Assembly: GCA_018340375.1 (NCBI GenBank)
Contig: JAFFJZ010000009.1
Coordinates: forward strand, 13,594,501 to 13,658,500
DNA length: 64,000 bases
DNA from: Gonatopus flavifemur
Lineage: Eukaryota; Arthropoda; Insecta; Hymenoptera; Dryinidae
Reading direction: 5' to 3'
This document shows, piece after piece, positions 10,069 through 26,502 of this stretch. The notes under the pieces are model-generated. The model was not told the DNA's origin and made no database searches. It saw only the letters and a program-made list of their open reading frames with translations. Made by a program: the position numbers and the translations under genes. The stretch's first letter is position 1. Every line of letters begins with the position of its first letter.

Positions 10069-10425
10069 ATCTAGGATATCCTCCCCGTGGATGATTGCGG
10101 GTGTTCCAGGGGGATATTCATGATACCTGTCCTTGATATCCTTTTTATCCATTCCTGGTAGTATCTGCTTCCTTTACGTGCTGGGGAGGATAAGTATCTC
10201 AGAGTTGGATCTTTTTCTTGAGTGGAATGAACTACTCAAGAAGAGGGATACGAACTGAGAGAAACGGAATCATCCTAATGCCAGAAACATCGGCGAAATT
10301 AAACGGAAGGAAAGCGAGGGGAAACTACCTTCCTTGACATGTTTCAATACTTCCCGAGGAAATGAAACCTTTTTCCTCACCTGGGATATTATGTAACAAA
10401 AACAAACAAACAAATTAATAGATAC

Positions 10426-12330
10426 ATGATGGCGCTCTCTCGGGTAAAATATTCCGGAGGTAAACTAGTCTCCCGTTCGGATCTCCGGGTGGAGGCTCCT
10501 CGAGGAAGCTTCATCAGCAAGGAACGAGAACCGAAGAATAGGATAGGGGAAAGGAACAACATTCTTCGAGTCGGAGCGTGGAATGTTAGATCACTGAGGC
10601 AAGCGGGAAAATTAGAAAATTTGAAATTAGAGATGAATAGGTTGAATGTAGACGTAATGGGGATTAGCGAAATGAGATGGCCACAAGAGGGCGATTTCTG
10701 GAGTGGGGATTATAGAATGATTCATACAGGATCAAAGAACGGTCAAGCAGGTGTAGGAATTGTAATGCATAAAAGAGTAGGAAATGGAATAGAAAATTAT
10801 TTGCAACATAATGAACGCGTGATGATGGTTAAAATCAGAACAAAACCGGTACACACAGTCATAGTCCAAGTATACATGCCCACATCTGCATATTCGGAGG
10901 AAGATATTGGAAAAACGTACGAAGAAATAGAAGAAGTGATAGAATATGTGAAGGGAGAAGAGAATTTGATAGTGATGGGGGATTGGAATGCGGTAGTAGG
11001 ACAAGGAAAAGAGGACAACATTATGGGAGATTTCGCGTTAGGGAGGAAGAACGATAGAGGACAACGTTCAGTCGAATTTTGTGAAAATCATAACATGGTT
11101 ATCACAAACACTTTATTCGAAAATCATCCAAGAAGAATCTACACCTCGAAAATGCCAGGAGATAGAGCAAGATACCAAATTGATTACATATTAGTGAAAC
11201 AAAGATTTAGGAACCAAGTGAAAAACTGTAAAACTTATCCCGGTGCAGATATAGATAGTGATTATAATATGTTGATGATGAAATGTTCTCTGAAATTCAA
11301 ATCTCTGAAGAAGAAAAGGAAAATGCAGGAAAGATGGAATTTGAAGAACCTCAAGCGGAAACAAACACATGAGGCACTCGAGAAAATGTTGGATGAAAAA
11401 TTGGGAGATCAAGCAGAGAAAGACTTGGGAATAGAGAGGAGATGGACAAAGATGAAGGGGGATATAAGAGAATGTGCGGATAAGATTTTGAAGAATGATG
11501 GAGTAGAACCTAAAAACCCATGGATAACGGGAGAAATTTCAGAATTGATAAATGAAAGAAGAAAATACAAGAATAATGATAGCCAAGAAGGCCAGCAACG
11601 ATACAAATCATTGGGAAATAAAATAATAAGGGAATCAAGGGAAGCAAAAGAACAGTGGTTAGAAGAGGAGTGTCAGGGAATAGAAATAAGATTGCATTTA
11701 GGAAGAATAGATGAAGCATATAGGATTATTGAAAGATTCTCCGGACAAATGAAATCTAGAAGCAATAAGATTAGAAACTCTCTAGGACGACAATTGATGA
11801 GAACGGAAGAGAAAATAGAACAGTGGATCAATCATTTGGGAGACTTGTATAGAGGAAACGATGATATAGCACTTTTAGAGAAGGAGGAGGATGTAGATGA
11901 GGAAGAATTGGGAGATTCGATATTGAGATCAGAATTCGACAAGGCTTTGAAAGAATTGAAAAATAATAAAGCGCCAGGCATAGATGGCATAAGTGCGGAC
12001 CTCATAAAAGCCTCCAGTGAAGGAACTCGCGACGCACTGTTCGAATTAGTTAGAGATATGTACGAGAAAGGAGAAGTACCGGAAGATTTCCAACAGAATA
12101 AAATTGTCGCTATCCCGAAAAAACAAGGGGCAGACAAACGCGAGGACTACAGAACGATCAGTTTAACTTCACATGCTTCGAAAATACTGACCAAAATTAT
12201 ATACAGGAGGATGGAAAATAAAATAGAGAGTAGATTAGCAGAAGATCAGTTTGGTTTTAGAAAGAATAGGGGAACGCGAGAAGCAATCTTAGTGTTATGG
12301 GAGAGGATCACGGGGATAAAATACAAATGA
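10426..12330 (+). pseudogene. LINE ORF, 5' part: endonuclease and start of reverse transcriptase
   Basis: The protein nicks target DNA and primes reverse transcription there. The APE-like endonuclease occupies about residues 45-290: GAWNVRSL, the catalytic Glu in ISEMRWP, GDWNAVVG and QIDYILV. The usual catalytic His in the terminal SDH motif is Tyr here (SDYNML), which should impair nicking. Residues 300-520 are a charged linker. The reverse transcriptase begins near residue 515 (NNKAPGIDGISADLI) and runs to DQFGFRKNRGTREAIL. The last 13 codons before the stop at 12330 come from the inserted LTR. The true continuation starts at 24379 in the same frame. Confidence 0.9.
12289..12292. repeat. 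4-bp target site duplication TTAG (left)
   Basis: TTAG precedes the TG of the left LTR. The same TTAG follows the CA of the right LTR at 24375-24378. A 4-bp duplication is usual for errantivirus-type integrases. Removing one copy and the element restores the LINE reading frame. Confidence 0.9.
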
Positions 12331-12593
12331 AATCCCAAACTTGAATTAACGATTTTATTCTAGAGGTAGAGTACAAAGCGAACGTGCGCTCGCGACGGAG
12401 TTCAAAATCGGAGTGCTCCCCAAGCGCGTCGTCTTCTAGCCAAAGCTTGAGAAAAAGGGAAAGCGTCCACCCTTTGGGTTTTTCCCGTAACGGTGGTGCG
12501 TTCTCTCCTACAGTGTTTGGGAATTTCCTGTTCGAGTACAAGGGTGTATGTATGTGTGTGTGTCGGTGTAGAGGGTAAGGCAGTGCCGTAACA
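12293..12593 (-). repeat. 3' LTR of the errantivirus-like element
   Basis: 301 bp, starting TGTTACGGC and ending CCCATAACA on the minus strand. An AATAAA poly(A) signal lies at 12359-12354, about 60 bp before the LTR end. Apart from 12433 it matches the other LTR base for base. Confidence 0.95.
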
Positions 12594-12604
12594 CGCCCCC
12601 CCTT
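12594..12604 (-). promoter_or_regulatory. polypurine tract for plus-strand DNA priming
   Basis: On the minus strand AAGGGGGGGCG directly abuts the 3' LTR, the position expected for the polypurine tract. The run is interrupted only by one C next to the LTR. Confidence 0.75.
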
Positions 12605-12605
12605 G

Positions 12606-12645
12606 GATGAGAAAGATGTTATCCCTGGATAACATCTTTCGCATC
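12606..12645 (-). other. 19-bp stem hairpin next to the polypurine tract
   Basis: Two 19-base arms pair at 18 positions with a 2-base loop. In the RNA this would be a very stable stem immediately before the polypurine tract. It might serve RNA export, stability or priming. The function is inference. Confidence 0.7.
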
Positions 12646-13108
12646 ATGACAATTGTGATGTGCCTTTATTACACTTGTTTTTGGTGTATTTATGTACTTA
12701 TCTATGTGTGAGGGTAGAACATTCCGATTTGCACATTGATTTTTCCTTAAAATCTAAATATAAAAAAAAATGAAAAGGAACCCTTCATGTCGGTACATTT
12801 AGTGACTTTTTTTTTTCTTTTTTTTTTCTAGTTTGTTTTTGTGTAAGTCAATCGTAATTCCTTTTGAAAGTAAAAAGAGTATATGTATATGTTTACTATA
12901 AGTATATGCATCCGTATTGTAGCAGTAGTAATGAAATGTATATGTATTTTCCATTTTTTTTTTCATTTTCGTTTTTTTTTTATCAATTACTAAGTATCAA
13001 GTCTTTATTCCCATTGCGATGGTCATAGAAGTTCGAAGAAATTCATGGCTATGTGCATATACATATTTGAAGGAAGGGAATAATTCTTTGGTCAATTTGA
13101 AATGTTGG

Positions 13109-13139
<31 letters not shown>

Positions 13140-13336
13140 GTGTATGTATATATATGTGTGTCTAGCAAGTAAATGTTACCTTGACTGTTTCTCATGTCCT
13201 ATCTTATGGAGTATGATTATGTTTTTGAATAGAAGTATAAAATGAGATGAAAAGAGGAAAAAAAAAAAAAATCGATTATATGCTTATTTACTAGTTTCAG
13301 GGAAATATTTCCCCCGTTATTATTATTGTTGTCCTC
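12646..13336 (-). other. AT-rich 3' noncoding region of the LTR element
   Basis: It holds homopolymer runs of A/T and a TA/TG microsatellite at about 13109-13161. No ORF or domain is visible. It separates the fourth ORF from the polypurine tract. Confidence 0.7.
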
Positions 13337-13789
13337 TTACGATGTTCCGTCCTGTCTTTGGTAATCATGTTCTCCATCGTTCCCCAGCATCACCATCTCG
13401 TGACCACGTTCTGCCGATTCGGTATCTCCCTGGGATTCTGTGCAGTGAACTCTCAAGGGGTCTCTGTATACTGTTACGTGTCCCAAAAAAAAACAGTTCT
13501 TCTCTGTTTTCTGGTTCAATTCTCTGTAACATTCTTCGCATGTTACTTCATTTCCCTTGATGTAAATATTCTTTTCGGTCTTATTTACGTAGCAAAATGC
13601 CTTGTTTAGGCACTCGTATGTTTCTTCGTGGTCTTGGGGTCTGGCTCCATCTATTTCTCCTTCATTTGCATCCAGCTCCATCGGTAACAATCCGTGTTCT
13701 TCCTCCTCCTCCGTTTGAATTGCGAAATTCAACATATATCTGTAACAGTGAATCGGTGTTATCGTTTTTTTTTTCCTGTCTATTATCAA
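13337..13789 (-). CDS. fourth ORF: small cysteine-rich, probably secreted accessory protein
   Basis: Unknown function. The open frame spans 150 codons but has no ATG at its beginning (first codon TTG). The first ATG is codon 19. A splice acceptor TGTTACAG lies at 13747-13740 and is identical to the env acceptor. Splicing the leader exon (23595-23570) here keeps frame and would supply a start and a hydrophobic N terminus. The body has a Glu run, then six cysteines (spacing C-x5-C-x17-C-x2-C-x11-C-x16-C), which could form three disulfides, and one N-glycosylation sequon (NKT). No transmembrane segment is visible. It lies 39 bp downstream of env. Internal initiation at codon 19 is the alternative. 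Confidence 0.6.
   Translation of the reverse strand: MIIDRKKKTITPIHCYRYMLNFAIQTEEEEEHGLLPMELDANEGEIDGARPQDHEETYECLNKAFCYVNKTEKNIYIKGNEVTCEECYRELNQKTEKNCFFLGHVTVYRDPLRVHCTESQGDTESAERGHEMVMLGNDGEHDYQRQDGTS
13740..13747 (-). promoter_or_regulatory. predicted splice acceptor for the fourth ORF
   Basis: TGTTACAG on the minus strand. The exon starts at 13739 with A as the third base of a codon. Sequence and phase equal those of the env acceptor at 15760-15753. The upstream tract is only weakly pyrimidine-rich in both cases. Confidence 0.55.
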
Positions 13790-13828
13790 TTATTTCGTTT
13801 TCTGTGTCATAATTTTCTTCTTTTTTTC

Positions 13829-15751
13829 TCAGTATCCTTCCATATAGTGCGGTTGTTTCTCTTCTTTTCTTTGGGATTCTTCGGGTGTCGTTTTCACGTC
13901 CTCCGGGATGATTTCTAATGGGACTACTCCTTCTTCTCTTACGTATTCCTGTTTTGTATCTGTGTAATGTGTAGTGTATTTCTTATTACATAATTTGTAT
14001 ATGTAGGCCATCAGACAGATCGGGGCATATTTGCTCAAGAGTATAATTATTGTCATTAACATAAATATTGTTCCCAATCCATATAACCCGTTTTCCAGTA
14101 GTGTTAATTTTCTGAGTGCTCTTTTCTGTTTCTGAATCTCTTCTGCTTGTTTATTTATGTCTACTAGCCTTGTTCCCATCGCTGCTAATTCCCCTGTTTC
14201 TATATGTGTTCCCTTGTTTAACACTGCTGTGTAAATCTCTTTGAAATCTACATTCTCTAATGAATTATTCAGAAATGTTTTCTGTATTTCTATGGGAGGT
14301 AAATACATTTTGTTTTCTGAAGAAAAAAGTGTTAGTGAAGTTGGTAACGTCGCGGATATGGAGTTCCCTGTACATTTCGGTTTTATTTTCAATAAGCCTG
14401 TATTCTCCAATGTTATTGCTACTGTTTCCTCTTTTGGGCACTCGATGTGCATTGATTCTCTCTCTGCCACTGAGTATAGCCAACTGTTTGGTTCTGATAA
14501 CTGTGTCCAGAATGGGGTTGTCAATGTGATTATCCGCACGTCGCAAGTGTTCAGATCTACATTTTCTGGGTTCATAAACAACTCGCTTTCGCATACTTTC
14601 TTATTGTAAATATGGAATAACGGCTGTTTACGTTTGCAAATATACTGGTTTAATGAAAATTTGCAATTTCCAAAATCTATCTCTGAAAAGTATGTATATG
14701 ATAATCTATTAGTTGTTATTGCAAAGAACGGTGCTATCGGTATTATGTAGCCAAATTTATTCTCTCTCATTCTAGTTGGCAATGGGATTAATCTATAGGT
14801 TGAAAATATTTGTGGGTTCAACAAAGGAATTGTTAGCACATATATAAGTTTGTTCTTTATGTACGCTATATCTAGTTTCGAAATTCTGACTAACTCTTCT
14901 GCATACTCAACTTCCAATGGAATTGGGATTCTTCCATGACTAGTTGTTTTACTGATTTCCTTTAATCCTTGAATTATTTCTGTTGGAGTTAAGATCTTCG
15001 GATGGATAATTCCTTGTTTTGCGAATAGAATTGCATTAATTATGTAATTCAAGTCTGTTTCGTATTCGTTGATAAAATTTTCTATTTCTGATAAAGCTGC
15101 TACCATCTGAGTTTCTAATGAGTTATGTACGACTTTTCCCTCCAAGTCTTTGATGTATTTAATCACCCTTCCAAAATGTTTTTTGTTTTCTTGTATTTCC
15201 CTTATTATCTGTTCCGATTTGTTTTGGAATACGCTAATCGAAGATCTTATTATGTGTGTTTGTTCCGTGAGCAACGCGGCTAAGCTTTGAGTATTGTTAT
15301 AGGTTTTATCTATTTGCTCATTATAATATTCAGCGTCTTTCTCATCCAATGTTCCGAACAATGCCCTGGATACTTGTCCAATAAATCCCAGTGGGGCACT
15401 TCTTTTCTTAATATTTCGTTTTTCCCTGTCAATTTCTGTGCGACCTACCAAGTTCTCTATTTGACCCTTCAATTCTTCAATTTTCCTTGCTCTGATCTGC
15501 AATCTCTTTACTAATACGTATGTTGGACATCTGAAATTTCCTCCATGGCATTCTTCGTGTACTTCTTCTATTATTTTTGGTATCGTCCAAGTTATATTCA
15601 AAAATTTGTCCAAATCCAAATATGTTAAAAGTTTCCACTCGTTATCGTATACGTATAAATTTCCAATTTTTTCGTAATATAGTCCCGGGTTATATTTGAA
15701 TTCTGTTTTTCTATATGTTGTTTCCGTTCCCGCTGTTGTTGCTACCGTCAA
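13829..15751 (-). CDS. env: Env: fusion-type envelope glycoprotein (baculovirus F-like)
   Basis: Putative membrane glycoprotein of an endogenous errantivirus, related to baculovirus F proteins. Of 640 codons, the first part (residues 1-117) ends in a basic furin-like site RNIKKR (112-117). It is followed by a hydrophobic, Gly-rich region (120-134) typical of the fusion peptide, a long helical ectodomain with conserved cysteines, one transmembrane segment near residues 560-590, and a cytoplasmic tail of about 50 residues. The frame overlaps the pol stop and begins with TTG, without ATG or signal peptide. An acceptor (TGTTACAG, AG at 15754-15753) at the frame start suggests expression from a spliced mRNA whose leader exon supplies both. 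The frame has no breaks. Confidence 0.88.
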   Translation of the reverse strand: MTVATTAGTETTYRKTEFKYNPGLYYEKIGNLYVYDNEWKLLTYLDLDKFLNITWTIPKIIEEVHEECHGGNFRCPTYVLVKRLQIRARKIEELKGQIENLVGRTEIDREKRNIKKRSAPLGFIGQVSRALFGTLDEKDAEYYNEQIDKTYNNTQSLAALLTEQTHIIRSSISVFQNKSEQIIREIQENKKHFGRVIKYIKDLEGKVVHNSLETQMVAALSEIENFINEYETDLNYIINAILFAKQGIIHPKILTPTEIIQGLKEISKTTSHGRIPIPLEVEYAEELVRISKLDIAYIKNKLIYVLTIPLLNPQIFSTYRLIPLPTRMRENKFGYIIPIAPFFAITTNRLSYTYFSEIDFGNCKFSLNQYICKRKQPLFHIYNKKVCESELFMNPENVDLNTCDVRIITLTTPFWTQLSEPNSWLYSVAERESMHIECPKEETVAITLENTGLLKIKPKCTGNSISATLPTSLTLFSSENKMYLPPIEIQKTFLNNSLENVDFKEIYTAVLNKGTHIETGELAAMGTRLVDINKQAEEIQKQKRALRKLTLLENGLYGLGTIFMLMTIIILLSKYAPICLMAYIYKLCNKKYTTHYTDTKQEYVREEGVVPLEIIPEDVKTTPEESQRKEEKQPHYMEGY

Positions 15752-18700
15752 TCTGTAACATGAGCAAGTTTTAACTTGTTACTATGTACTGTTTTCGTCC
15801 TCGTGGGGGTTATATATATTATTACGTTTGTTTCATTTATCATTGCTTTGACTTTGTAAGGTCCTAGATATTGGTCATCTAGTTTCTTTTTCGCTTCGTT
15901 TACTAAAAACACTAAATCTCCCGGTTCGAACTTTCGACAATTCGTTTTTCTGTCGTAATATTTTTTAGCTTTTGCTTTCGCTTCGTCCAATCTTATTGCA
16001 GCTGTTCTTTGTGCTTCACTAATTTTGTTCGTGAGTTCTCTTAAAAAGGATTCATATGTTATTTCGGGGGTATCCTTGCAGTTGAATGTTGATGGCAAAC
16101 GTACCAATTTCCCGAAAATGAGTTCAAACGGTGTATATCCCGTGCCCTCGTGTACCGCGGTGTTATAAGAAAATATCGCGAATCGAATCCATCTGTCCCA
16201 ATCCTTTTTATCGTTGATATAATGTTTTAAATATTCTATCAACCCCAGGTGAGTCCTTTCTAGAGAGCCATTTGATTGTGGTCTATATGGAGTTGTTTTT
16301 ATTTGTTCGATTTGGAACAATTGTGCAAAGTTTTTCATAACTATACTCATGAAATTTTTCCCCTGGTCCGTTAAAATTGATTTGGGTGTACCGTATCTGC
16401 AAATGAATTCTTCCGCCAGTGTTGTTGCTATTGTCTTGGCTGTCGCATCTTTTAATGCGTAAGCGTCACAGTATTTCGTGAGGTTGCATTGGAGTGTCAA
16501 TATGAATTTATTGTTTCTGTCTGTTTCTGGCAATGGTCCTACGATATCCAGAGCCACCTTTTCAAACGATTCCGTAGGGGTATCTGTTATCACCATCGGT
16601 TGTCTGGTTTTAACTCTGGTTACTTTCGTTTTTTGACAGTTCATGCAGTTTCTTATATATTCTTGAATGTCTTTCTTCATGGTTCCCCAGTAGTATTTAC
16701 TTCGAATTCTGTTATAAGTTTTTGCAATTCCCTTATGGCCTCCTATTAACGACTCGTGGTTTTCTTTTATTATATCTATTCTGTCCTCTTCTATCGGGTA
16801 TATTATTTCATCAAGGCAGATTTGTACTTTGATGCCTGTATTCATGAATAAATAGCTCAGGATTTTCTTCACGTGCAACATTTGTAACTTCGTCAGCGGT
16901 ATTTCTTTTACCGCGATTGCTATTTTCTTTCGTTTATATTTTATACAAACATCTCTTAATGTTTCTAGGATGTTGAACATTATCTCCGTGGTTATTTTAT
17001 CGTGTTCTTGATTTTTCGATACTACTGTGAAAATATACATGTCTTTATTTCTGCTCATTATAATATCACCCAATGTTGGTTCCCATTTTTTTAATTTTGA
17101 TTTGTTCAAAAATTCCCTGTCATATAGTTCCCTGAGTGTTTCCGTGTTTGTTTCGAGATCCGCCGATATAAAGTGGACATAATCGTCATTCGTAAGTGTT
17201 AATTTATCTCGAGTTTCTGTGATATTCGTATTCGATGTGATATTTGCAAATTTTCTCAAAAATTCCATGTATTCCCCTCTATCTTCCTTGAGGTAATATT
17301 TTCTCTCTGTCTCTGATTTTTCTTCCTTTCCTATTACACTCCCCTTTTTTTCATCTTCTTTACTTGGTTTTTCATCTCCATTTTCACTTTCCCTCCTTGT
17401 TCTTCCCCTTTTTTCTTCTTGTATTTGCGTTTCGTCGTCCGTTGTATTTCTTTGATGATGATGATGAATCATCGCCTCCGTCTCTCCAACTTCGTGGACA
17501 AAGGAGTCGTCGCTCATCACTACATTGTTTTCTATTGAATCTTGTTTATGTTCTACCTCTCTGTCTGTTTCTACATCTGTACCCACTGTATAATCTGTAT
17601 CAATTTCTGTGACTCTATCGTAATTTTCTATTTCCGCGAGTGATTCCAATGATGCGTGTAAATTGGCGACTTCTGTTGTTGTTGATGCATCTGTTTCGTC
17701 TTCATCTGTATTTTCCCCATAATAAATCCTTCGCGTTTTCCTAGTTACTCTCATCGGTTCATTATTGGAAGATGATCTTGCTCTTTTGAATAATGTCTCC
17801 GTTGGGTCTCCTCCATTTTTCTGCTCCTGTCCTATTATTCTTTCTTCTTTGCTATCTCGTCCTGATCTCATTTCTTCTCCCTCTTCCGAGCTTGTTGTGC
17901 TTGGTAGCGGTATATTTTTCATATACTCTGCTGGCAAGTAATTTTCGCACCTCTCGTTCTCTTTCTGCATCTTCCTTTCCGCTGGGTTCCCTGATCCAGA
18001 TTCTGCTGATCTGTTCTTACGTTTTCGCAGGTTGTATGTATATCCTGGTTTTCCTATTGCCTTTGTTCTTGGATATTCTAATCTCTTCTTCTTCCTCTTT
18101 GGTTTCCGAACACTTGAAGCCCTCCCTTCTTTCCTTGAATCCGAGTTTGTACTTACTGTTAATGCTTTTCTTTTTGCTGCAATTGGTAATACTTCTTTTA
18201 TTTCCCTTGGTATTCTAGATAGCGCATCTGCATTTTTATTTGTTTTCCCCGTTTTATAGGCAATTGTATACGAATATTCTTCTAGCTTTAATCTCCATCT
18301 CATCAATCTGGATGATGGGTCACTCACGTTGTTTAGATATATCAATGGCTTATGATCCGTTACTAACGTGAAGTTATTCCCATATAAGTATGGCCTGAAG
18401 TGTTTCACTGCGTAAATAATTGCTAAAAGTTCTTTTTCCGTGACTGTATAATTTATCTCAGCTCCATTCAATACTCTGGAAGCATATGCGATCGGTAAAT
18501 CTTCTCCTATCTTACCTTGACTTAATACCGCGCCTATTGCAAAGTTTGATGCATCCGTTGTCAATACGAATGGCTTCGTGAAATCCGGGTATTTCAGAAT
18601 TGGCTCCTTGCAGATGATGTCTCTCAAATGTTCGAAGGATATCTGCTGTTGTACTCCCCATGTGAATTTTGTGTTCTTCTTCAATAGGTTATTGATAGGC

Positions 18701-20907
18701 TTTGCTATTTTTGCGAAGTTTGGGATGAACCTCCTATAATATCCTATTAATCCCAGAAATTGTTTAATTTGTTTTGGATCCTGAGGGGTTGGGTAATTTT
18801 TAACCACTTCAATCTTCTCTGGATTCGGTTTTATTCCTTCTTCCGTTATTATGTGCCCAAGGTACGCCACTTCTCGTCTCAAAAATTCGCATTTTTCTGG
18901 ATGTAGTTTTAATCCTACCGCATCCAGTCTATCCATAAGTGCGTTGAATCTCACTTTATGCTCCTCCAATGATCTTGCGATTAAAATTATATCGTCTATA
19001 AAGGTTTCGATTCCTAGTAGTCCCTTCAAAACTTGATTGATCGTTCTTTGATATGTTGCTGGCCCATTTTTCAATCCGAAGGGCATTCTGAGGAATTCGT
19101 AATGTCCCTCCGACGTTGAAAAAGCTGTTTTTGGGATGTCCCTTTCGTCCATCGGTATTTGATGAAAACTAGAAGGCGCATCAAACACTGAGAAATATTT
19201 TGCACTACCCAGTTGTTCCAATAATTCTGTTGTATTCGGTATCGGGTGAGCATCCATAATTGTTTTCTCGTTCAGCTTCCTGTAGTCAATGACCATCCTC
19301 CATTTTTTCTGTCCATTCGCATCAGGTTTTTTTGGTACCACCCACACTGGCGAATCGTATGGTGATGTCGAAGGTCTTATTATTTCATCTTGCAGTAACT
19401 TTCCAATTTGTTTATTGATTTCTTCTTTGTGAACTTGCGGATGTCTATACTGTTTTGTGTTTATGGGAATCTCATCCGTAGTTGGTATTTTGTTTGGTGG
19501 TACTCTGGCTGCTGTCAATTGATCCCCTGGTAAGTAGAACAAGTTATTCTTATTTTTTGTGATCTCTAAAACGTGGTCCTTTTCTTCTTTGTTCAAATGG
19601 TCCAAACTAAGTTTCGATTTTAGTAACTGTATCCTCTCTTCCTGTGTTTGTATTATTTTTCCTTCGTGCTGTGTGTTGTCTTGTGTTTCGAAGTTTCTCT
19701 TTTCGTGTACCATTGGTTTGTTCTCCATGTGTTTTATTCCTAGAAACCTTTCTTTTCCTACAGCTTCCCTTGGTTCTTCTGCTACCTTATTGTTTTCCGA
19801 ACCCCGTGAGTGTCGATTGTCCGTTATTTTTATTGCTGGTTGAGTTTTTCTTTCTATACCCACGTTCGTTGTTTCCTCTGAAGTATGTACCTTTCGCTGC
19901 CTGGTTTTTTCTACTTCTTTGGGGTTTTCCCTTACGTTTCTCGAGTTTGTAGGCACATCTGTTTGGCATATTTCGTTATATTTCTTTGCTGTTTGTAACT
20001 TTTCCTGTCCCCCCCTTTTATTCCTGTCGGTTCTATTTATTTCTCTTGGCTTCGTGTATCCTTCCACTTCATTATTATTGGTATGCCTGTTATATTTCAT
20101 TTTTCGTTGACTATTTGCAAAATACACTGACTCAGCATACATATTCCCACCATTAATTTCGTGCTCTTTCTCCCCTAAATCCTCTGATTCTTGGCTCGTT
20201 TCTAATATTTCTACTTGTTCTAACTCTAATGTTGGGACAGGTATTTTTACATCATAATCATTTGTGTTAAACGCATACGTGAATGTTGTGCCATTATGAT
20301 TTGTAACCAATGCTTCTTGTGCGAAAACGTTGTCTCCTAACTCTAAATCGTTTATCATACCCGTTCGCATATTTTCCGCGTTTATTAGCCGAACTGGAAT
20401 CACTTTCTTTGAGCTCGCTGGAATCATTAATTTTGTGCTTTCAAAAGGGATTTCTATATTCTTTTTCGTGATGATTGAGTTTGTCACGAATGACAGTATC
20501 GCTTTCTCGTTCTTCAGGAACTCCACCCCTATTATCCCGCTTTGTTTGATTGGAAAATCATTTGGCACTATATGAAAAATGTGTTCGCTTCCGTCGATTT
20601 CTAGTCTTACCTCTGCCAACGTATGAATCAGTTGTTTTGTTATGCCTTCAAGTGCTATTGTTTTTTCCGGTTCGCAATTTGTATATGGTGTGAGTACTTT
20701 TTCTTTGATAATGTTCACCTTCGCGCCTGTATCTACTAGGAAAATTTCTTCCCATTTCTGGAATTGTTTGGATTTCAAAGTAATTTCAACATTTTCCCCT
20801 CCTGTGCTATTATTCATTTGAAAAATAGGTACTTTTAATTTTCCTTTTGATCCCAAATCGTACCCTCTTTTGGAACCTAATCGCAGTTTAAATCCTCTTC
20901 GTCCTTT
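15748..20907 (-). CDS. pol: Pol polyprotein: protease, reverse transcriptase, RNase H, integrase
   Basis: Replication polyprotein, 1,702 codons from the first possible start (20856); the frame is open from 20907 and has no ATG near its beginning. It is probably made as Gag-Pol by -1 frameshifting at 20892-20886. Counting from 20856: aspartic protease active site DTG at 42-44; reverse transcriptase with RMPFGLKNGPATYQ and an FIDD active site near 618; RNase H beginning TTDASNFAIGAVLSQ; an acidic/basic low-complexity insert of about 300 residues; a possible degenerate macro-like domain near 1260-1345; an integrase zinc finger ending CMNCQK; an integrase core with Asp near 1439 and 1495 and Glu near 1530; and a GPY motif near the C terminus. 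No break is visible. Confidence 0.95.
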   Translation of the reverse strand, partial: KGRRGFKLRLGSKRGYDLGSKGKLKVPIFQMNNSTGGENVEITLKSKQFQKWEEIFLVDTGAKVNIIKEKVLTPYTNCEPEKTIALEGITKQLIHTLAEVRLEIDGSEHIFHIVPNDFPIKQSGIIGVEFLKNEKAILSFVTNSIITKKNIEIPFESTKLMIPASSKKVIPVRLINAENMRTGMINDLELGDNVFAQEALVTNHNGTTFTYAFNTNDYDVKIPVPTLELEQVEILETSQESEDLGEKEHEINGGNMYAESVYFANSQRKMKYNRHTNNNEVEGYTKPREINRTDRNKRGGQEKLQTAKKYNEICQTDVPTNSRNVRENPKEVEKTRQRKVHTSEETTNVGIERKTQPAIKITDNRHSRGSENNKVAEEPREAVGKERFLGIKHMENKPMVHEKRNFETQDNTQHEGKIIQTQEERIQLLKSKLSLDHLNKEEKDHVLEITKNKNNLFYLPGDQLTAARVPPNKIPTTDEIPINTKQYRHPQVHKEEINKQIGKLLQDEIIRPSTSPYDSPVWVVPKKPDANGQKKWRMVIDYRKLNEKTIMDAHPIPNTTELLEQLGSAKYFSVFDAPSSFHQIPMDERDIPKTAFSTSEGHYEFLRMPFGLKNGPATYQRTINQVLKGLLGIETFIDDIILIARSLEEHKVRFNALMDRLDAVGLKLHPEKCEFLRREVAYLGHIITEEGIKPNPEKIEVVKNYPTPQDPKQIKQFLGLIGYYRRFIPNFAKIAKPINNLLKKNTKFTWGVQQQISFEHLRDIICKEPILKYPDFTKPFVLTTDASNFAIGAVLSQGKIGEDLPIAYASRVLNGAEINYTVTEKELLAIIYAVKHFRPYLYGNNFTLVTDHKPLIYLNNVSDPSSRLMRWRLKLEEYSYTIAYKTGKTNKNADALSRIPREIKEVLPIAAKRKALTVSTNSDSRKEGRASSVRKPKRKKKRLEYPRTKAIGKPGYTYNLRKRKNRSAESGSGNPAERKMQKENERCENYLPAEYMKNIPLPSTTSSEEGEEMRSGRDSKEERIIGQEQKNGGDPTETLFKRARSSSNNEPMRVTRKTRRIYYGENTDEDETDASTTTEVANLHASLESLAEIENYDRVTEIDTDYTVGTDVETDREVEHKQDSIENNVVMSDDSFVHEVGETEAMIHHHHQRNTTDDETQIQEEKRGRTRRESENGDEKPSKEDEKKGSVIGKEEKSETERKYYLKEDRGEYMEFLRKFANITSNTNITETRDKLTLTNDDYVHFISADLETNTETLRELYDREFLNKSKLKKWEPTLGDIIMSRNKDMYIFTVVSKNQEHDKITTEIMFNILETLRDVCIKYKRKKIAIAVKEIPLTKLQMLHVKKILSYLFMNTGIKVQICLDEIIYPIEEDRIDIIKENHESLIGGHKGIAKTYNRIRSKYYWGTMKKDIQEYIRNCMNCQKTKVTRVKTRQPMVITDTPTESFEKVALDIVGPLPETDRNNKFILTLQCNLTKYCDAYALKDATAKTIATTLAEEFICRYGTPKSILTDQGKNFMSIVMKNFAQLFQIEQIKTTPYRPQSNGSLERTHLGLIEYLKHYINDKKDWDRWIRFAIFSYNTAVHEGTGYTPFELIFGKLVRLPSTFNCKDTPEITYESFLRELTNKISEAQRTAAIRLDEAKAKAKKYYDRKTNCRKFEPGDLVFLVNEAKKKLDDQYLGPYKVKAMINETNVIIYITPTRTKTVHSNKLKLAHVTD
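15753..15760 (-). promoter_or_regulatory. predicted env splice acceptor at the end of pol
   Basis: TGTTACAG on the minus strand, with the exon starting at 15752. It lies within the last codons of pol, as expected for errantivirus env mRNAs. With the donor at 23569 the intron is 7,817 nt and the joined frame is open. Confidence 0.7.
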
Positions 20908-22055
20908 TCAATTTCGATCACGTTTATATTCTTCTTCCTACATTCTATACTATCGTGTCCGGCATTGTTGCAATTCCTACAGAATTTTTTCGATCTTGCT
21001 AAAGCCCTACATTCTTCTGTATCATGTCCCGTCAAATTACAAAAGGTACAATGTTTCCTAGATTTTTCATGTGCCCTACACTCTTGTATCATATGCCCCG
21101 GTCTCTTACAAAAAATACAATACCTTATATTCCCTCGCGTATCATGTTGATCATCATTCAATCTTTGTTCATAGTTTCTCGCTTGGTAATTTAGTTGTAC
21201 TTGATGTGAATTTGGTCTAAATTGTTTGTATTGTGTGTTGTATGGTGGTGTGGTGTGTGTGTTTTGTGTGTAGCTTGTGCTAGGTCTCGAATTTGTATAT
21301 TGCAGTGAATTTGCATGTGTTTGGTATTTCTCATAATGATTATGTGGGTTTGACATCTGCGGTCTCGTGTATTGTACATTTTTCTGTCCCGTTCTTGTTG
21401 GACAATTTCGATGAGTGTGTCCTACTGTTCCGCAATATTGACAGTCATCGTTCCTAAAACCCGTGAATTTATTTGTTCCTAGTCTTTTCGCCCTATTCTG
21501 TAAATAATCCCATGCTGCAACTGCTTGGTCTATCGCTTGTTTTAAAGTTTTTGGTTCCGTGTTCGTTACTTTATTCTCTAATTCGTCGTCTAGAAGCCCT
21601 GCGATGAAACTTGTTGAAGCTGTGTTTTCTAATCCTGCAATTATCCCTGTCGCTACTTCGGGTTCATTATATTCCTTTATCACATCTTTAGCTCTACTTT
21701 GGATATTTTGAATCCGTCTCCCAAACTCTACCGGTGTTTCCCATCTTTCTTGTTTCGCAAAAGCTAGTTCTATTTGCCACTTCGATTGTGACTGTTTTGG
21801 TAAGTAAATTTTTTTTATTTCTCTAATCAAATCGTCTATGTTCTCGAAATCTATATTCCCCACGTTCAAATCTGCGTCCCCCCGTATTTTCGTCCGCACT
21901 ATACTCGCTAAAAGTTTTTCTTGCCCCGGTTGTATCAAGTCGCGTGCTATTTTACAAGATCTGATAAACGAACCCGCGGGTATATTATGCCCATCGAAAA
22001 TTTGTACGCACTCCGCTGCGTCCCGTAAAGAAAACGTATTTCTTGTATTTTGCAT
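20877..22055 (-). CDS. gag: Gag with four CCHC zinc knuckles
   Basis: Structural protein of the particle, 392 codons from ATG 22055 to TAG 20879-20877. Residues 1-200 look like a helical capsid region of Ty3/gypsy type. Four CX2CX4HX4C knuckles follow: CQYCGTVGHTHRNC, then after a Gln/Asn/Tyr/Thr-rich spacer CIFCKRPGHMIQEC, CTFCNLTGHDTEEC and CRNCNNAGHDSIEC. These would bind the RNA genome. Drosophila errantivirus Gags generally lack knuckles, as far as I recall, so four are notable. The end overlaps the open pol frame by about 30 nt. Confidence 0.93.
   Translation of the reverse strand: MQNTRNTFSLRDAAECVQIFDGHNIPAGSFIRSCKIARDLIQPGQEKLLASIVRTKIRGDADLNVGNIDFENIDDLIREIKKIYLPKQSQSKWQIELAFAKQERWETPVEFGRRIQNIQSRAKDVIKEYNEPEVATGIIAGLENTASTSFIAGLLDDELENKVTNTEPKTLKQAIDQAVAAWDYLQNRAKRLGTNKFTGFRNDDCQYCGTVGHTHRNCPTRTGQKNVQYTRPQMSNPHNHYEKYQTHANSLQYTNSRPSTSYTQNTHTTPPYNTQYKQFRPNSHQVQLNYQARNYEQRLNDDQHDTRGNIRYCIFCKRPGHMIQECRAHEKSRKHCTFCNLTGHDTEECRALARSKKFCRNCNNAGHDSIECRKKNINVIEIEKDEEDLNCD
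20886..20892 (-). promoter_or_regulatory. -1 ribosomal frameshift heptamer TTTAAAC
   Basis: In the gag frame the heptamer is read T TTA AAC, two codons before the gag stop. Slipping back one base enters exactly the open pol frame. TTTAAAC is a known strong slippery sequence. I did not identify a convincing downstream pseudoknot. Confidence 0.8.
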
Positions 22056-24054
22056 ATTCGCCTATGTTACTGTTTGTGTGTTTGTTGTTGTAGTTGTTAG
22101 TGTGTTTGTTTGTGGGATGGTATTATCACCGCCTGGATTCATTCCAAAATTTTTTTTTTTTCACGTGAATTTCTTCGATTTTTCAAGTATTTTATATAAT
22201 TGAATAACTTTTCTCTCCCCTACTTTATTGCCTCTGATGATCAACAATCTCGCGAGTTTGCCTTCTCTTTCCTGAGTTTGTTATCAGCTAATCTGAATTA
22301 TTAAAATACCCAGTTGAGAAGGATTTGTGTGGATGTAAATAATAAAAATAAAAAATATATATATATATGCGAAGAAATGTTGAAAATAACACATTCACGT
22401 ACGTAATTCTGACCTAAGGAACTGATGTAATCGGGAGAAAAAGTATCAATTTGAAGTGATTCTCAATTAAGCAAACATTATGTGTTACTTATATATATTA
22501 CACGAAATATCTGTCGATTTGACGTACGGTTACCAGCACATCAACGTGAAAGTTATGCTACTGGATAGGAATGCGAAATATACAAGCACTCAACATTTAT
22601 AAGCTGTTGATATGATTCGTACGTGATCTGTCAAAACAACCGTTTAAATTAGAGTCACTGAATTGTGTCTACAAAAGGCATCTGAAGGCTATTGAGAAAG
22701 TGATTAACATGATATATGTCATATTAGCATTTTTTTTTGTATTCAGTGTAAACCATTTTGTACATGACGAGTGTGTTATATTCAACCAATTCGTTTCAAC
22801 TGTTTACAATTTACGTAATACTGGATATTAATTTCACTGTTTTTCATGCAATGTGGGTGTGTCGTAATTGAAAATCTTTATGTCATTGAAAAATTTTACA
22901 CAAGAATTCTGATCTCATTTGATTAAAACATGGAAAATCGTTTTGGAATATAAATTTTACGTACAATTTCGTGTTCTTTTTTTTTTGTTCGTTTCTGTTT
23001 TTTGTTTCAAATTTGTAGACTACTGTTATCGGAATTATTTTTATTTGTTCATATATTTACCTCTATTCACTTTGAGTGTATTGTGTTAATAGAGAAAAAA
23101 AAAAGAGAATATAGATAACAAAAAGGTGCGGAATAGCAGTAAATATTGCTCTATAACTGATTTTACACGATATCAAACAATTTATCATTCATTTTCTCTC
23201 GCTATTCATTGTTCATGTTAACTCCCCGCCGTTATCTTCCAAATATACGCATTGATCGGGAACAATATCCTTTTTCTTTTTACTGATTCCAATAAAATTA
23301 TACTTATTATTTCCTGAATTTCATTAAGACGAGTCTAGTGAAATTTCTCATGTGTGTTGAATCAATTTATGTTCGTGTAGTTCCGAAAATCAAAACAAAT
23401 TTTTCTCCATCTTTTTTTTTTTTTTTTTTTAATCTACTTAGATATTTGAAATAATTCGTTTATTTTTCCCTATCAATGCGGTATTTTTGTTCAGTGTTAT
23501 ATTAATATCTATGATGTCTGTGTGGTGTAAATGTATGTGGAAAAGACGGATTTTTTTTTCATAGCTTACAGGAGTAGTCCTATTGCGTTCCACATCTCCG
23601 TACGGCGTCGCTTCCCTTGTTGGTTCGGTCGGCCTTTCCTTCCTTTTTCCTCGTTCTAATGTTGACTTTCAATTGTTTAATCACAATTTTCACTGTTTAT
23701 CAGTCACTTGTCTATTGTCACTGTTCATTGGCACATTCACTATTCCGTCGTATTTTCACCTCTTCAATTCATCGTCCCCCTTCCACTAGTTGTCCTTTCA
23801 CGTCGTTTAATTTTTATTCTATCGTTTATTGTTTATTCCACTCTTCACTGTTAGTTTTTTTCTTTTTCACTTTTATGATTCACTGCTTTTTAATGCACTT
23901 TCAGTGTGCTTCCGCGCGCGTCGCGTGTTGAGGAGAAGTATTTTGATTCGTTCGGGACTTCTTTAATTGAAAAAAAATTTCCTCATTGGTTTTGGTTTTG
24001 TTTTTTTTTATTTTTTTTTTATTTGATTTGTTTCTTGAATTAGTGCTCTTCAGG
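22056..24054 (-). other. leader of about 2 kb of the LTR element
   Basis: AT-rich sequence between the primer binding site and gag. It contains the predicted leader exon ending at 23570 and several homopolymer runs, but no long coding frame. Such a length is unusual and may hold packaging or translation-control structures. Confidence 0.6.
23570..23595 (-). CDS. leader mini-exon with start codon and donor
   Basis: ATG at 23595-23593 opens eight codons plus two bases, mostly small and hydrophobic residues, ending at a donor GTAAGC (first base 23569). Joined to the acceptors at 15753 or 13740 it stays in frame and completes a hydrophobic N terminus like a signal peptide. In unspliced RNA the same ATG gives only a nine-codon upstream ORF that stops at 23566. 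The assignment rests on frame, phase and motif agreement, not on RNA evidence. Confidence 0.65.
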
Positions 24055-24072
24055 CGAACACCGCTGCCACCA
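24055..24072 (-). promoter_or_regulatory. primer binding site, probably tRNA-Leu
   Basis: One base inside the 5' LTR. The plus strand reads CACCGCTGCCACCA at its end, which from memory matches the 3' end of tRNA-Leu (AAG/UAG family) including CCA. About 14 bases match. tRNA-Ser and tRNA-Lys, the primers known in Drosophila errantiviruses, do not fit. Confidence 0.65.
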
Positions 24073-24073
24073 C

Positions 24074-24374
24074 TGTTATGGGAGAGGATCACGGGGATAA
24101 AATACAAATGAAATCCCAAACTTGAATTAACGATTTTATTCTAGAGGTAGAGTACAAAGCGAACGTGCGCTCGCGACGGAGTTCAAAATCGGAGTGCTCC
24201 CCAAGCGCGTCGTTTTCTAGCCAAAGCTTGAGAAAAAGGGAAAGCGTCCACCCTTTGGGTTTTTCCCGTAACGGTGGTGCGTTCTCTCCTACAGTGTTTG
24301 GGAATTTCCTGTTCGAGTACAAGGGTGTATGTATGTGTGTGTGTCGGTGTAGAGGGTAAGGCAGTGCCGTAACA
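24074..24374 (-). repeat. 5' LTR of the errantivirus-like element
   Basis: 301 bp, identical to the other LTR except 24214 (T instead of C). It is followed by the second TTAG target duplication at 24375-24378. AATAAA lies at 24140-24135. I see no TATA box, so an initiator-type promoter is likely. Confidence 0.95.
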
Positions 24375-24378
24375 TTAG

Positions 24379-25495
24379 CACTCAGGGCAGTAATAGAGAG
24401 GAGGATAGTGCTGAAGGAATCTGTGTACATAGGTCTTGTAGATATACAAAAGGCTTTCGATAATGTGGACTGGGAGAAGATGTTTGCGATCCTGAAGAAG
24501 GTGGGAATAAATTATAAAGATAGGAGAATAATATACGAATTATATAAGAATCAAAGTGCAATAATAGACATAGAGGGTCAGGAAGGGGAAGCACGAATAA
24601 GAAGAGGGGTGAGACAAGATGCTCATTATCGCCACTGATTTTCGATTTATATATAGAAGAAGCAATGAACGAAGTGAAGGAGGAAACCCAATCGAAATTA
24701 CAGATTCAGGGAGAAAATATAAGTATGTTGAGATTCGCGGATGACATAGCTATATTGGCCACGAGTAGTACTGAGTTAGAAAATATTCTCAACACTATGA
24801 GAACAATATTATTGGAAAACTATTGTATGAATATAAATAAAGACAAAACAAAATTCATGATGTGTACAGCAGCGAAAACAGCTAGAAGAACGAAAATCGA
24901 AATAGATACCGAGACAATTGAACAGGTGAAAGAATTCAAATATCTAGGAAGCATAATTACAGAGAACGGCAAAAGCGGAAGAGATATAAGAGCAAGAATA
25001 GCACAAGGGAAACAGGCTTTTCACCAAAAGAGACAGTCATCATGCTCGAAAAATATAAACTTGGAAGTAAGGAAGAAATTCTTGAAAAGTTACGTTTGGA
25101 GCACAGCATTATATGGTTGTGAAACTTGGACAATGGGGGAAACTGATCAACGAAGACTTGAAACTTTTGAAATGTGGTGTTATAGGAGGATGCTTAGAAT
25201 GAAATGGATAGACAAAGTCAAAAATGAAGAAGTACTCGAGCAGATAAATGAAGAAAGAAATCTTTTGAAACACATCGTGGAAAGGAGAAGCAATCTTATT
25301 GGACACACATTACGGCATGAGAGTTTATTGAAAACAATATTGGAAGGGAAAATGAATGGTAAAACTGGTAAAGGTAGACCTAGAGCAAGTTATATGAAGC
25401 AAATCGTACAAGACAAGGGATGTAGTAGATATGTAGAAATTAAACGTTTGGAGGATAATAGACAGGGGTGGAGGGTTCCATCAAATCAATCGTAA
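24379..25495 (+). pseudogene. LINE ORF, 3' part: reverse transcriptase core and C terminus
   Basis: Continues the frame broken at 12292. It contains LVDIQKAFDNVDW, then GVRQ, where one base is missing near 24618 and shifts the frame. The normal continuation (CSLSPLIFDLYIEEAM) is readable in the next frame, followed by the catalytic LRFADDIAIL and the C-terminal WSTALYGCETWTM and LIGHTLRHESLL segments. The stop is at 25495. So apart from the LTR insertion this copy has one frameshift and the endonuclease His-to-Tyr change, and is inactive. Confidence 0.9.
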
Positions 25496-26236: not shown

Positions 26237-26502
26237 ATATACTCGATACCCACATTCTAAAACGTCGTATCGCACTTTTAGAAAATTTTTCAGGACCCTA
26301 TAAAAACAGTTCATTATCTCAACAAAAACAAAAATTTATTCATTTTCACTGTTTAATTCAACCACTATGAGTCACTACTATGAAGTTAAAAATTCAAAAT
26401 GAATCAATTTTTGTTTTTGTTGAAATGATAAAGTGCTTTTATCGTGTCCTGAGAAATTTTTCAAGTGGGATACGACGTCTCAGAACGTGGGTATCGATAT
26501 AC
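26237..26502. mobile_element. 266-bp foldback MITE
   Basis: The left end ATACTCGATACCCAC and right end GTGGGTATCGATAT are inverted, and the arms match imperfectly for about 100 bp on each side, through motifs such as ACGTCGTATC / GATACGACGT. TA dinucleotides adjoin both ends, so Tc1/mariner-type mobilisation is possible. Confidence 0.6.

What the first reader, a model, noticed from the sequence alone, without database searches (positions are those of the whole stretch)
13740..23595. One leader exon may provide signal peptides for two proteins of an endogenous retrovirus
Env has no ATG and no signal peptide. A leader mini-exon (23595-23570) ends at GTAAGC after eight codons plus two bases. Two acceptors, at the end of pol (15753) and just after env (13740), share the octamer TGTTACAG and the same phase, so the mini-exon joins in frame to env and to the cysteine-rich fourth ORF. 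Hydrophobic residues fall on both sides of both junctions. A shared signal exon with alternative acceptors would be an economical way to make two secretory-pathway proteins.
Basis: partly seen in the sequence, partly recalled or inferred. Interest (0 to 1): 0.9.

Follow-up and report, generated by a model that had tools for sequence, protein, structure and literature searches.

The report
Retrovirus leader exon feeding two genes
A young insect endogenous retrovirus carries a tiny 26-base leader exon that, judging by conserved splice sites, probably starts both its envelope protein and a small cysteine-rich protein encoded after the envelope gene; RNA evidence is still needed.

Summary
The sequence observation holds. 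The window carries a young minus-strand insect LTR retrovirus (12293-24373) with a Baculo_F-type env. The 26-nt phase-2 mini-exon (23595-23570) is found in 8 of 9 fetched loci that have a clear primer-binding site and enough sequence. Genome-wide, 16 of 20 exact pattern matches lie upstream of an env or ORF4 relative. The env acceptor is kept, in phase, in 19 of 20 loci. The fourth ORF is a selected gene (29 matches). Its acceptor is YAG in 19 of 24 places, while an ATG follows it in only 9 of 24. An upstream start, most simply the shared leader, fits best.

The env segment drifts like a signal peptide (29% identity). The ORF4 segment is 80% conserved and precedes three CxxC pairs, so ORF4 looks more like an intracellular zinc-binding accessory protein than a second secreted one. 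A short peptide exon feeding Env is already known from Drosophila ZAM and Beagle elements. Its alternative use for a post-env gene was not found in the papers searched. No RNA evidence was available.

The parts
24074..24373 (-). 5' LTR (300 nt)
   Evidence: direct repeat with 12293-12592, given as 100%; one differing base visible to the eye
12293..12592 (-). 3' LTR (300 nt)
   Evidence: flanks 12289-12292 and 24374-24377 both read CTAA on the minus strand, a 4-bp target-site duplication
24055..24073 (-). primer-binding-site-like stretch next to the 5' LTR
   Evidence: position; the same stretch follows the LTR in relatives; tRNA not identified
23570..23595 (-). leader mini-exon, 26 nt, eight codons plus two bases, phase 2
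23564..23569 (-). splice donor GTAAGC; in unspliced RNA it supplies the stop of the leader frame
20877..22061 (-). gag-like ORF (by position; no significant Pfam match)
15748..20907 (-). pol ORF, 1719 aa, with RT, RNase H and integrase matches
15753..15760 (-). env splice acceptor TGTTACAG, inside the last codons of pol
13829..15752 (-). env exon (Baculo_F family)
13740..13747 (-). ORF4 splice acceptor TGTTACAG
13337..13739 (-). ORF4 exon; its 3' part is damaged in this copy

Best explanation
The element is a young insect endogenous retrovirus that makes two spliced mRNAs from one leader mini-exon. One donor (23569) is joined either to the acceptor at the end of pol, giving Env, or to the acceptor after env, giving ORF4. 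Both take their start codon and first eight residues from the mini-exon. The donor leaves CT, so any first base of the next exon gives Leu, and the phase suits both acceptors. In unspliced gag-pol RNA the donor itself closes the leader frame with a stop. For Env the composite N-terminus serves as a signal peptide. For ORF4 the leader supplies the start and a short hydrophobic front ahead of a strictly conserved motif; the product is most likely an intracellular zinc-binding accessory protein. Shown: ORFs, site conservation, phases, selection. Inferred: that splicing happens, that ORF4 uses the same donor, where ORF4 acts and what it does. Confidence below is for the whole statement; for the shared leader alone I would say about 0.75.
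For: Mini-exon: 26 nt, phase 2 and GTRAG in 8 of 9 fetched loci with a clear primer-binding site and enough sequence; exon identity 0.78, last 11 nt 0.95, flanks 0.35-0.46 over 7 non-identical loci; 16 of 20 exact genome matches lie upstream of env (within 20 kb) or ORF4 (within 25 kb) relatives. Env acceptor kept in 19 of 20 loci, same phase. ORF4: 29 matches, 22 of 26 distinct places under 2.5 kb after an env-clade match; pairwise pN 0.16-0.46 against pS 0.63-0.98. ORF4 acceptor YAG in 19 of 24, AAG in 2, AG lost in 3; ATG after it in only 9 of 24, yet codons 2-18 have pN 0.078 and pS 0.917 over eight copies, four of them without that ATG. Env post-junction segment 29% identical, ORF4's 80% (five loci). 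Three CxxC pairs and a His in 4 of the 4 longest copies aligned.
Against: No RNA evidence. The leader of C323a (L027/L082) has a primer-binding site but no mini-exon, and a weak primer-site-like stretch in L038 has none after it. AG is lost at the ORF4 junction in C88b, C373 and C392b. ORF4 is not recognisable after env in L016, L017, L022 and L064. The window's own ORF4 is damaged. Four of 20 exact mini-exon matches have no env or ORF4 match in range; at up to two mismatches the reversed control pattern gave 27 against 43. The weaker matches include C373, whose donor is altered, and C35, whose ATG position reads ATC. Zinc binding rests on cysteine spacing only; Pfam gives sub-threshold hits.
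Confidence: 0.5

Rival explanations
1. One reading: one signal exon sends both Env and ORF4 into the secretory pathway.
For: The leader peptides are hydrophobic and uncharged apart from one His. B-type ORF4 copies have a short hydrophobic run and then an acidic stretch after the junction. Acidic residues after a hydrophobic run favour translocation (recalled).
Against: The ORF4 segment is 80% conserved where env's is 29%; no steady small-residue cleavage pattern is visible to the eye; three CxxC pairs and a His suit a zinc site inside the cell.
Confidence: 0.28
2. ORF4 does not use the leader: it starts at its own ATG by internal initiation or from an internal promoter, and the acceptor match is incidental.
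For: The window copy has an ATG four bases after the acceptor, as do 9 of 24 places.
Against: 15 of 24 places lack that ATG, yet codons 2-18, ahead of any other Met, are the most constrained part. AG stays at the junction in 21 of 24 places.
Confidence: 0.08
3. ORF4 is made by splicing, but from another donor or through an extra internal exon, as in doubly spliced accessory messages of complex retroviruses.
For: Such messages are common in complex retroviruses (recalled).
Against: The known donor is already in phase, and no other exon is needed. A conserved second donor was not searched for, so this is untested.
Confidence: 0.11
4. ORF4 is a relic or is read through from env.
For: Several copies, the window's included, are damaged.
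Against: Purifying selection. The frame of ORF4 relative to env differs among ten loci and the spacer holds 1-8 stops in the ORF4 frame (env itself ends early in L006 and L018).
Confidence: 0.03

Closest known systems
Drosophila insect ERVs of the ZAM and Beagle subclades (PMC12992720; passages seen)
   Different: The passages seen name only env as the target of that exon. Here a second conserved gene after env has an in-phase acceptor. Pol phylogeny was not tested.
MMTV Env and Rem (PMC5371415; abstract and passages seen)
   Same: One signal peptide is expressed from two proteins of a retrovirus, Env and an accessory protein.
   Different: There the whole 98-residue signal peptide is shared; here only eight codons and two bases. 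ORF4 is unrelated to env in sequence, and its route is unknown.
Cer1 CERV of C. elegans (PMC10309623; abstract and passages seen)
   Same: A spliced accessory protein in an LTR retrotransposon, its C-terminal half encoded where env would be; five exons, some shared with gag.
   Different: No Env; a much longer protein (517 aa); exons 1-3 share the gag frame, whereas here the exon is shared with env.
sORF1/sORF2 of MDG1-group elements (PMC11952523; passages seen)
   Same: Small accessory genes in insect LTR retrotransposons; the paper reports some Lepidoptera elements with sORF2 after pol (7 of 22 consensus sequences).
   Different: Those transcripts show no splicing; sORF2 is a transmembrane protein, most with an N-myristoylation motif. 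ORF4 is Cys-rich, about 140 aa, after env, and neither it nor the leader begins with that motif.
Tax/Rex of HTLV (recalled; the passages of PMC3434621 seen do not state the shared start codon)
   Same: A gene after env that borrows a start from an upstream exon by splicing.
   Different: No sequence relation was tested; different virus family.

Membership tests
insect endogenous retrovirus (Errantivirus-like, Metaviridae) | LTRs with a short target-site duplication | tested here: met
insect endogenous retrovirus (Errantivirus-like, Metaviridae) | pol with RT, RNase H and integrase, in gypsy order | tested here: met
insect endogenous retrovirus (Errantivirus-like, Metaviridae) | Env of the baculovirus F family | tested here: met
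   PF12259, 4.6e-46
insect endogenous retrovirus (Errantivirus-like, Metaviridae) | Env made from a spliced mRNA | not testable with these tools
   conserved donor, acceptor and phase; no RNA data
ZAM or Beagle subclade | place in a Pol tree | not tested
   no tree was made
MMTV Rem-type shared signal peptide | second protein contains the whole Env signal peptide | tested here: not met
   only the 26-nt exon can be common; the post-junction segments of env and ORF4 differ
sORF2/FAST-like protein | N-terminal myristoylation motif beginning Met-Gly | tested here: not met
   leader peptides begin MW, MM or MI; ORF4's own ATG, where present, is followed by Leu
zinc-finger or zinc-ribbon protein | conserved paired Cys/His ligands and a match to a known fold | tested here: inconclusive
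   three CxxC pairs and a His in 4 of the 4 longest copies aligned; Pfam only sub-threshold (Zn_ribbon_8, E 0.32); PDB search by sequence gave nothing significant

The most novel reading that the evidence does not exclude
This is a lineage of complex insect retroviruses: one leader mini-exon, through two alternative acceptors, makes Env and a conserved accessory zinc-binding protein encoded after env. The protein acts inside the cell as a regulator of viral RNA or of the host, an independent counterpart of Tax, Rem or CERV.
Probability: 0.42. Interest if true: 0.8.

Novelty: new variant of a known kind. Interest (0 to 1): 0.6.

Why it matters
Insect endogenous retroviruses are usually drawn as simple gag-pol-env elements. 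A conserved fourth gene that shares Env's start exon would make this lineage a complex retrovirus of invertebrates. It would show how one very small exon can serve two products while its donor closes the frame in unspliced RNA. The splicing claim can be tested with ordinary RNA-seq of the host, and ORF4 is a concrete candidate for an unexplored accessory function.

Tried and rejected
Octamer identity as evidence: rejected, because it is not conserved and a third copy lies inside ORF4. Own-ATG start of ORF4 as the general rule: rejected. Env read-through: rejected. ORF4 homologs outside this genome: none among 5.8 billion proteins with one sequence or with an alignment of eight (436 candidates, none scored E <= 0.1), none in viral contigs, no significant Pfam or PDB match. 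These collections hold few insect genomes, so absence there is weak.

Literature: seven searches bearing on insect elements listed no title or abstract on a post-env gene sharing the env leader exon; two more were on MMTV (58) and HTLV (67). Only listings and the passages or abstracts cited were seen. Most subscription papers are not held, and the appendix figures of PMC12992720 were not seen. PMC13172572 held none of the six terms sought.

Limits of the counts: of 90 env matches, comparisons used the 20 with loci (L004-L023), plus 3' pieces of 9 further clade places and 9 distant ones. The 90 include several pieces of one copy. Some copies are near-identical pairs (C354/C366, C176/C355, L016/L017), so counts are not independent events. 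One search used 40 env and 26 ORF4 places; three of the 29 ORF4 matches were pieces of places already listed. Of 24 ORF4 places, the starts of several were extrapolated and the junction read by eye.
Full report
What is there. On the minus strand, 12293-24373, lies an LTR element with 300-nt LTRs. One search gives them as 100% identical; one differing base is visible to the eye. The flanks carry the 4-bp duplication CTAA. Along the element come a gag-like ORF (22061-20877), a 1719-aa pol (20907-15748) with RT, RNase H and integrase matches, an env of the baculovirus F family (PF12259, 4.6e-46) and a small fourth ORF without a Pfam match. The genome (G000, 636 Mb, unnamed) holds many relatives. 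The closest named Env relatives in the protein search are from Hymenoptera: Odynerus spinipes (43% over 70% of the query), then Athalia rosae, Orussus abietinus and Osmia lignaria. That suggests, but does not prove, a hymenopteran host.

The mini-exon. Of 21 first-round 5' pieces (L003 and L024-L043), 8 held a recognisable mini-exon beside a primer-binding site and 13 did not. In most of the 13 no such site lay within the 4 kb fetched; L027 has one without a mini-exon, and its leader, read on into L082, has none either; L038 has only a weak site-like stretch. So the score is 8 of 9 loci with a clear site and enough sequence. The piece L086 ends just after its site, but the genome-wide search later found the exon of that copy (C176:1255988). 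All 8 exons have 26 nt, phase 2 and GTRAG, with peptides such as MMSIIGLL, MISIVGLL and MIGITGPL. L003 is a near copy of the window element, and L030 and L031 are near-identical to each other. Among 7 non-identical ones, mean ungapped identity is 0.78 in the exon and 0.95 in its last 11 nt, against 0.35-0.46 in the 30-nt blocks outside. In dinucleotide shuffles such an exon appears in 0.7-2.0% of 300 trials per locus; note that these seven loci were chosen because they carry it. A genome-wide pattern search gave 20 exact matches, 16 of them upstream on the same strand of an env-clade match (within 20 kb) or an ORF4 match (within 25 kb). With one mismatch it was 1 of 3, and with two mismatches 4 of 20. 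The reversed control pattern gave 27 matches against 43 in all at up to two mismatches, so most weaker matches are chance.

Two details. Read without splicing, the leader frame stops at codon 10 in 8 of 8, because the donor GTAAG or GTGAG supplies TAA or TGA in this phase; with a phase-2 GTRAG donor this follows automatically. And since the exon ends in CT, any first base of the next exon gives leucine; A, C and G all occur as first base of the ORF4 exon.

The env half. In 19 of 20 env loci CATGTT[AG]CAG is kept at the end of pol, followed by A, and the env frame opens in the same phase; L020 lacks the motif. The next eight residues have a positive mean hydropathy in 19 of 19, while their letters drift (mean identity 0.26 over ten residues in 11 loci). 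That is what a split signal peptide should look like. [quoted passage not shown]

The ORF4 half. ORF4 gives 29 matches in the genome; of 26 distinct places, 22 lie within 2.5 kb after an env-clade match. It follows none of the nine distant env loci fetched (L073-L081), and was not recognised after L016, L017, L022 and L064. Pairwise pN is 0.16-0.46 and pS 0.63-0.98, often saturated. Where the homology begins there is an acceptor: YAG in 19 of 24 places, AAG in two (C364, C313), AG lost in three (C88b, C373, C392b). In the places with AG the open frame needs two bases from the exon before it, as the leader donor gives. An ATG four bases after the acceptor is present in 9 of 24 places; elsewhere it reads ACG, ACA, ACT, GTG, GTA or something else, and the eight B-type places have none there. 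Yet codons 2-18, ahead of any other Met, are the most constrained part: pN 0.078 and pS 0.917 over eight A-type copies, four of them without that ATG. These residues must be translated also where there is no ATG, so the start lies upstream, and the in-phase mini-exon is the simplest source. Read-through from env is unlikely: the relative frame differs among ten loci and the spacer holds 1-8 stops.

Is ORF4 secreted? I think probably not. In five loci compared for both, the first 11 residues after the junction are 29% identical for env and 80% for ORF4. A signal peptide that is cut off should drift, as env's does. The segment LNFPxQTEEEEEHGLLP is kept in A-type copies; B-type copies have a shorter hydrophobic run and then an acidic stretch. 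In the four longest copies aligned the body has three CxxC pairs and a His in all four, and a further Cys in three. Pfam offers only sub-threshold hits, a zinc ribbon among them, and the PDB nothing significant. No homolog was found among 5.8 billion proteins or in viral contigs. The window's own ORF4 lacks the last CxxC pairs, and the C14 copy has a frame break in ORF4.

How it most likely works. One donor, two acceptors: leader to env for the envelope, leader to ORF4 for a small accessory protein. For Env the shared residues form the front of a signal peptide. For ORF4 they give the start and a hydrophobic front whose role is open. No junction has been seen in RNA, and the composite N-termini were not built or scored.

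Novelty. The env mini-exon is known. One signal peptide expressed from two retroviral proteins is known from MMTV Env and Rem (PMC5371415, abstract and passages). A spliced accessory gene in an LTR retrotransposon is known from Cer1 CERV (PMC10309623, abstract and passages). An insect endogenous retrovirus with a conserved post-env gene that shares the env leader exon did not appear in the listings. I rate it a new variant of a known kind.

Noticed in passing
10366-12330 (+) and 24548-25495 (+): The retrovirus sits inside a non-LTR retrotransposon on the other strand: an endonuclease plus the start of the reverse transcriptase lie on one side, the rest of the reverse transcriptase on the other.
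   Followed up: partly
16798-18270 (-): About 500 residues of pol between RNase H (ending near residue 878) and the integrase zinc-binding domain (from 1375) match no Pfam family; the pol ORF is long at 1719 aa.
   Followed up: partly
22055-22143 (-): An ATG upstream of the gag-like ORF is in frame with it, but a TAG lies between it and the next in-frame ATG at 22055; whether this is damage or a regulatory feature is unknown.
   Followed up: no
G000:C88:621829-624664: One relative has the mini-exon only 1.3 kb before its env match, which suggests that most of its gag-pol is missing.
   Followed up: no
G000:C25:43825, C166:3023086, C251:791357, C323:37047912: Four exact mini-exon matches have no env or ORF4 match in range; they may be further elements or remnants.
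   Followed up: no
26282-26460: Inverted repeat with 75-nt arms, 84% complementary, 29 nt apart.
   Followed up: no
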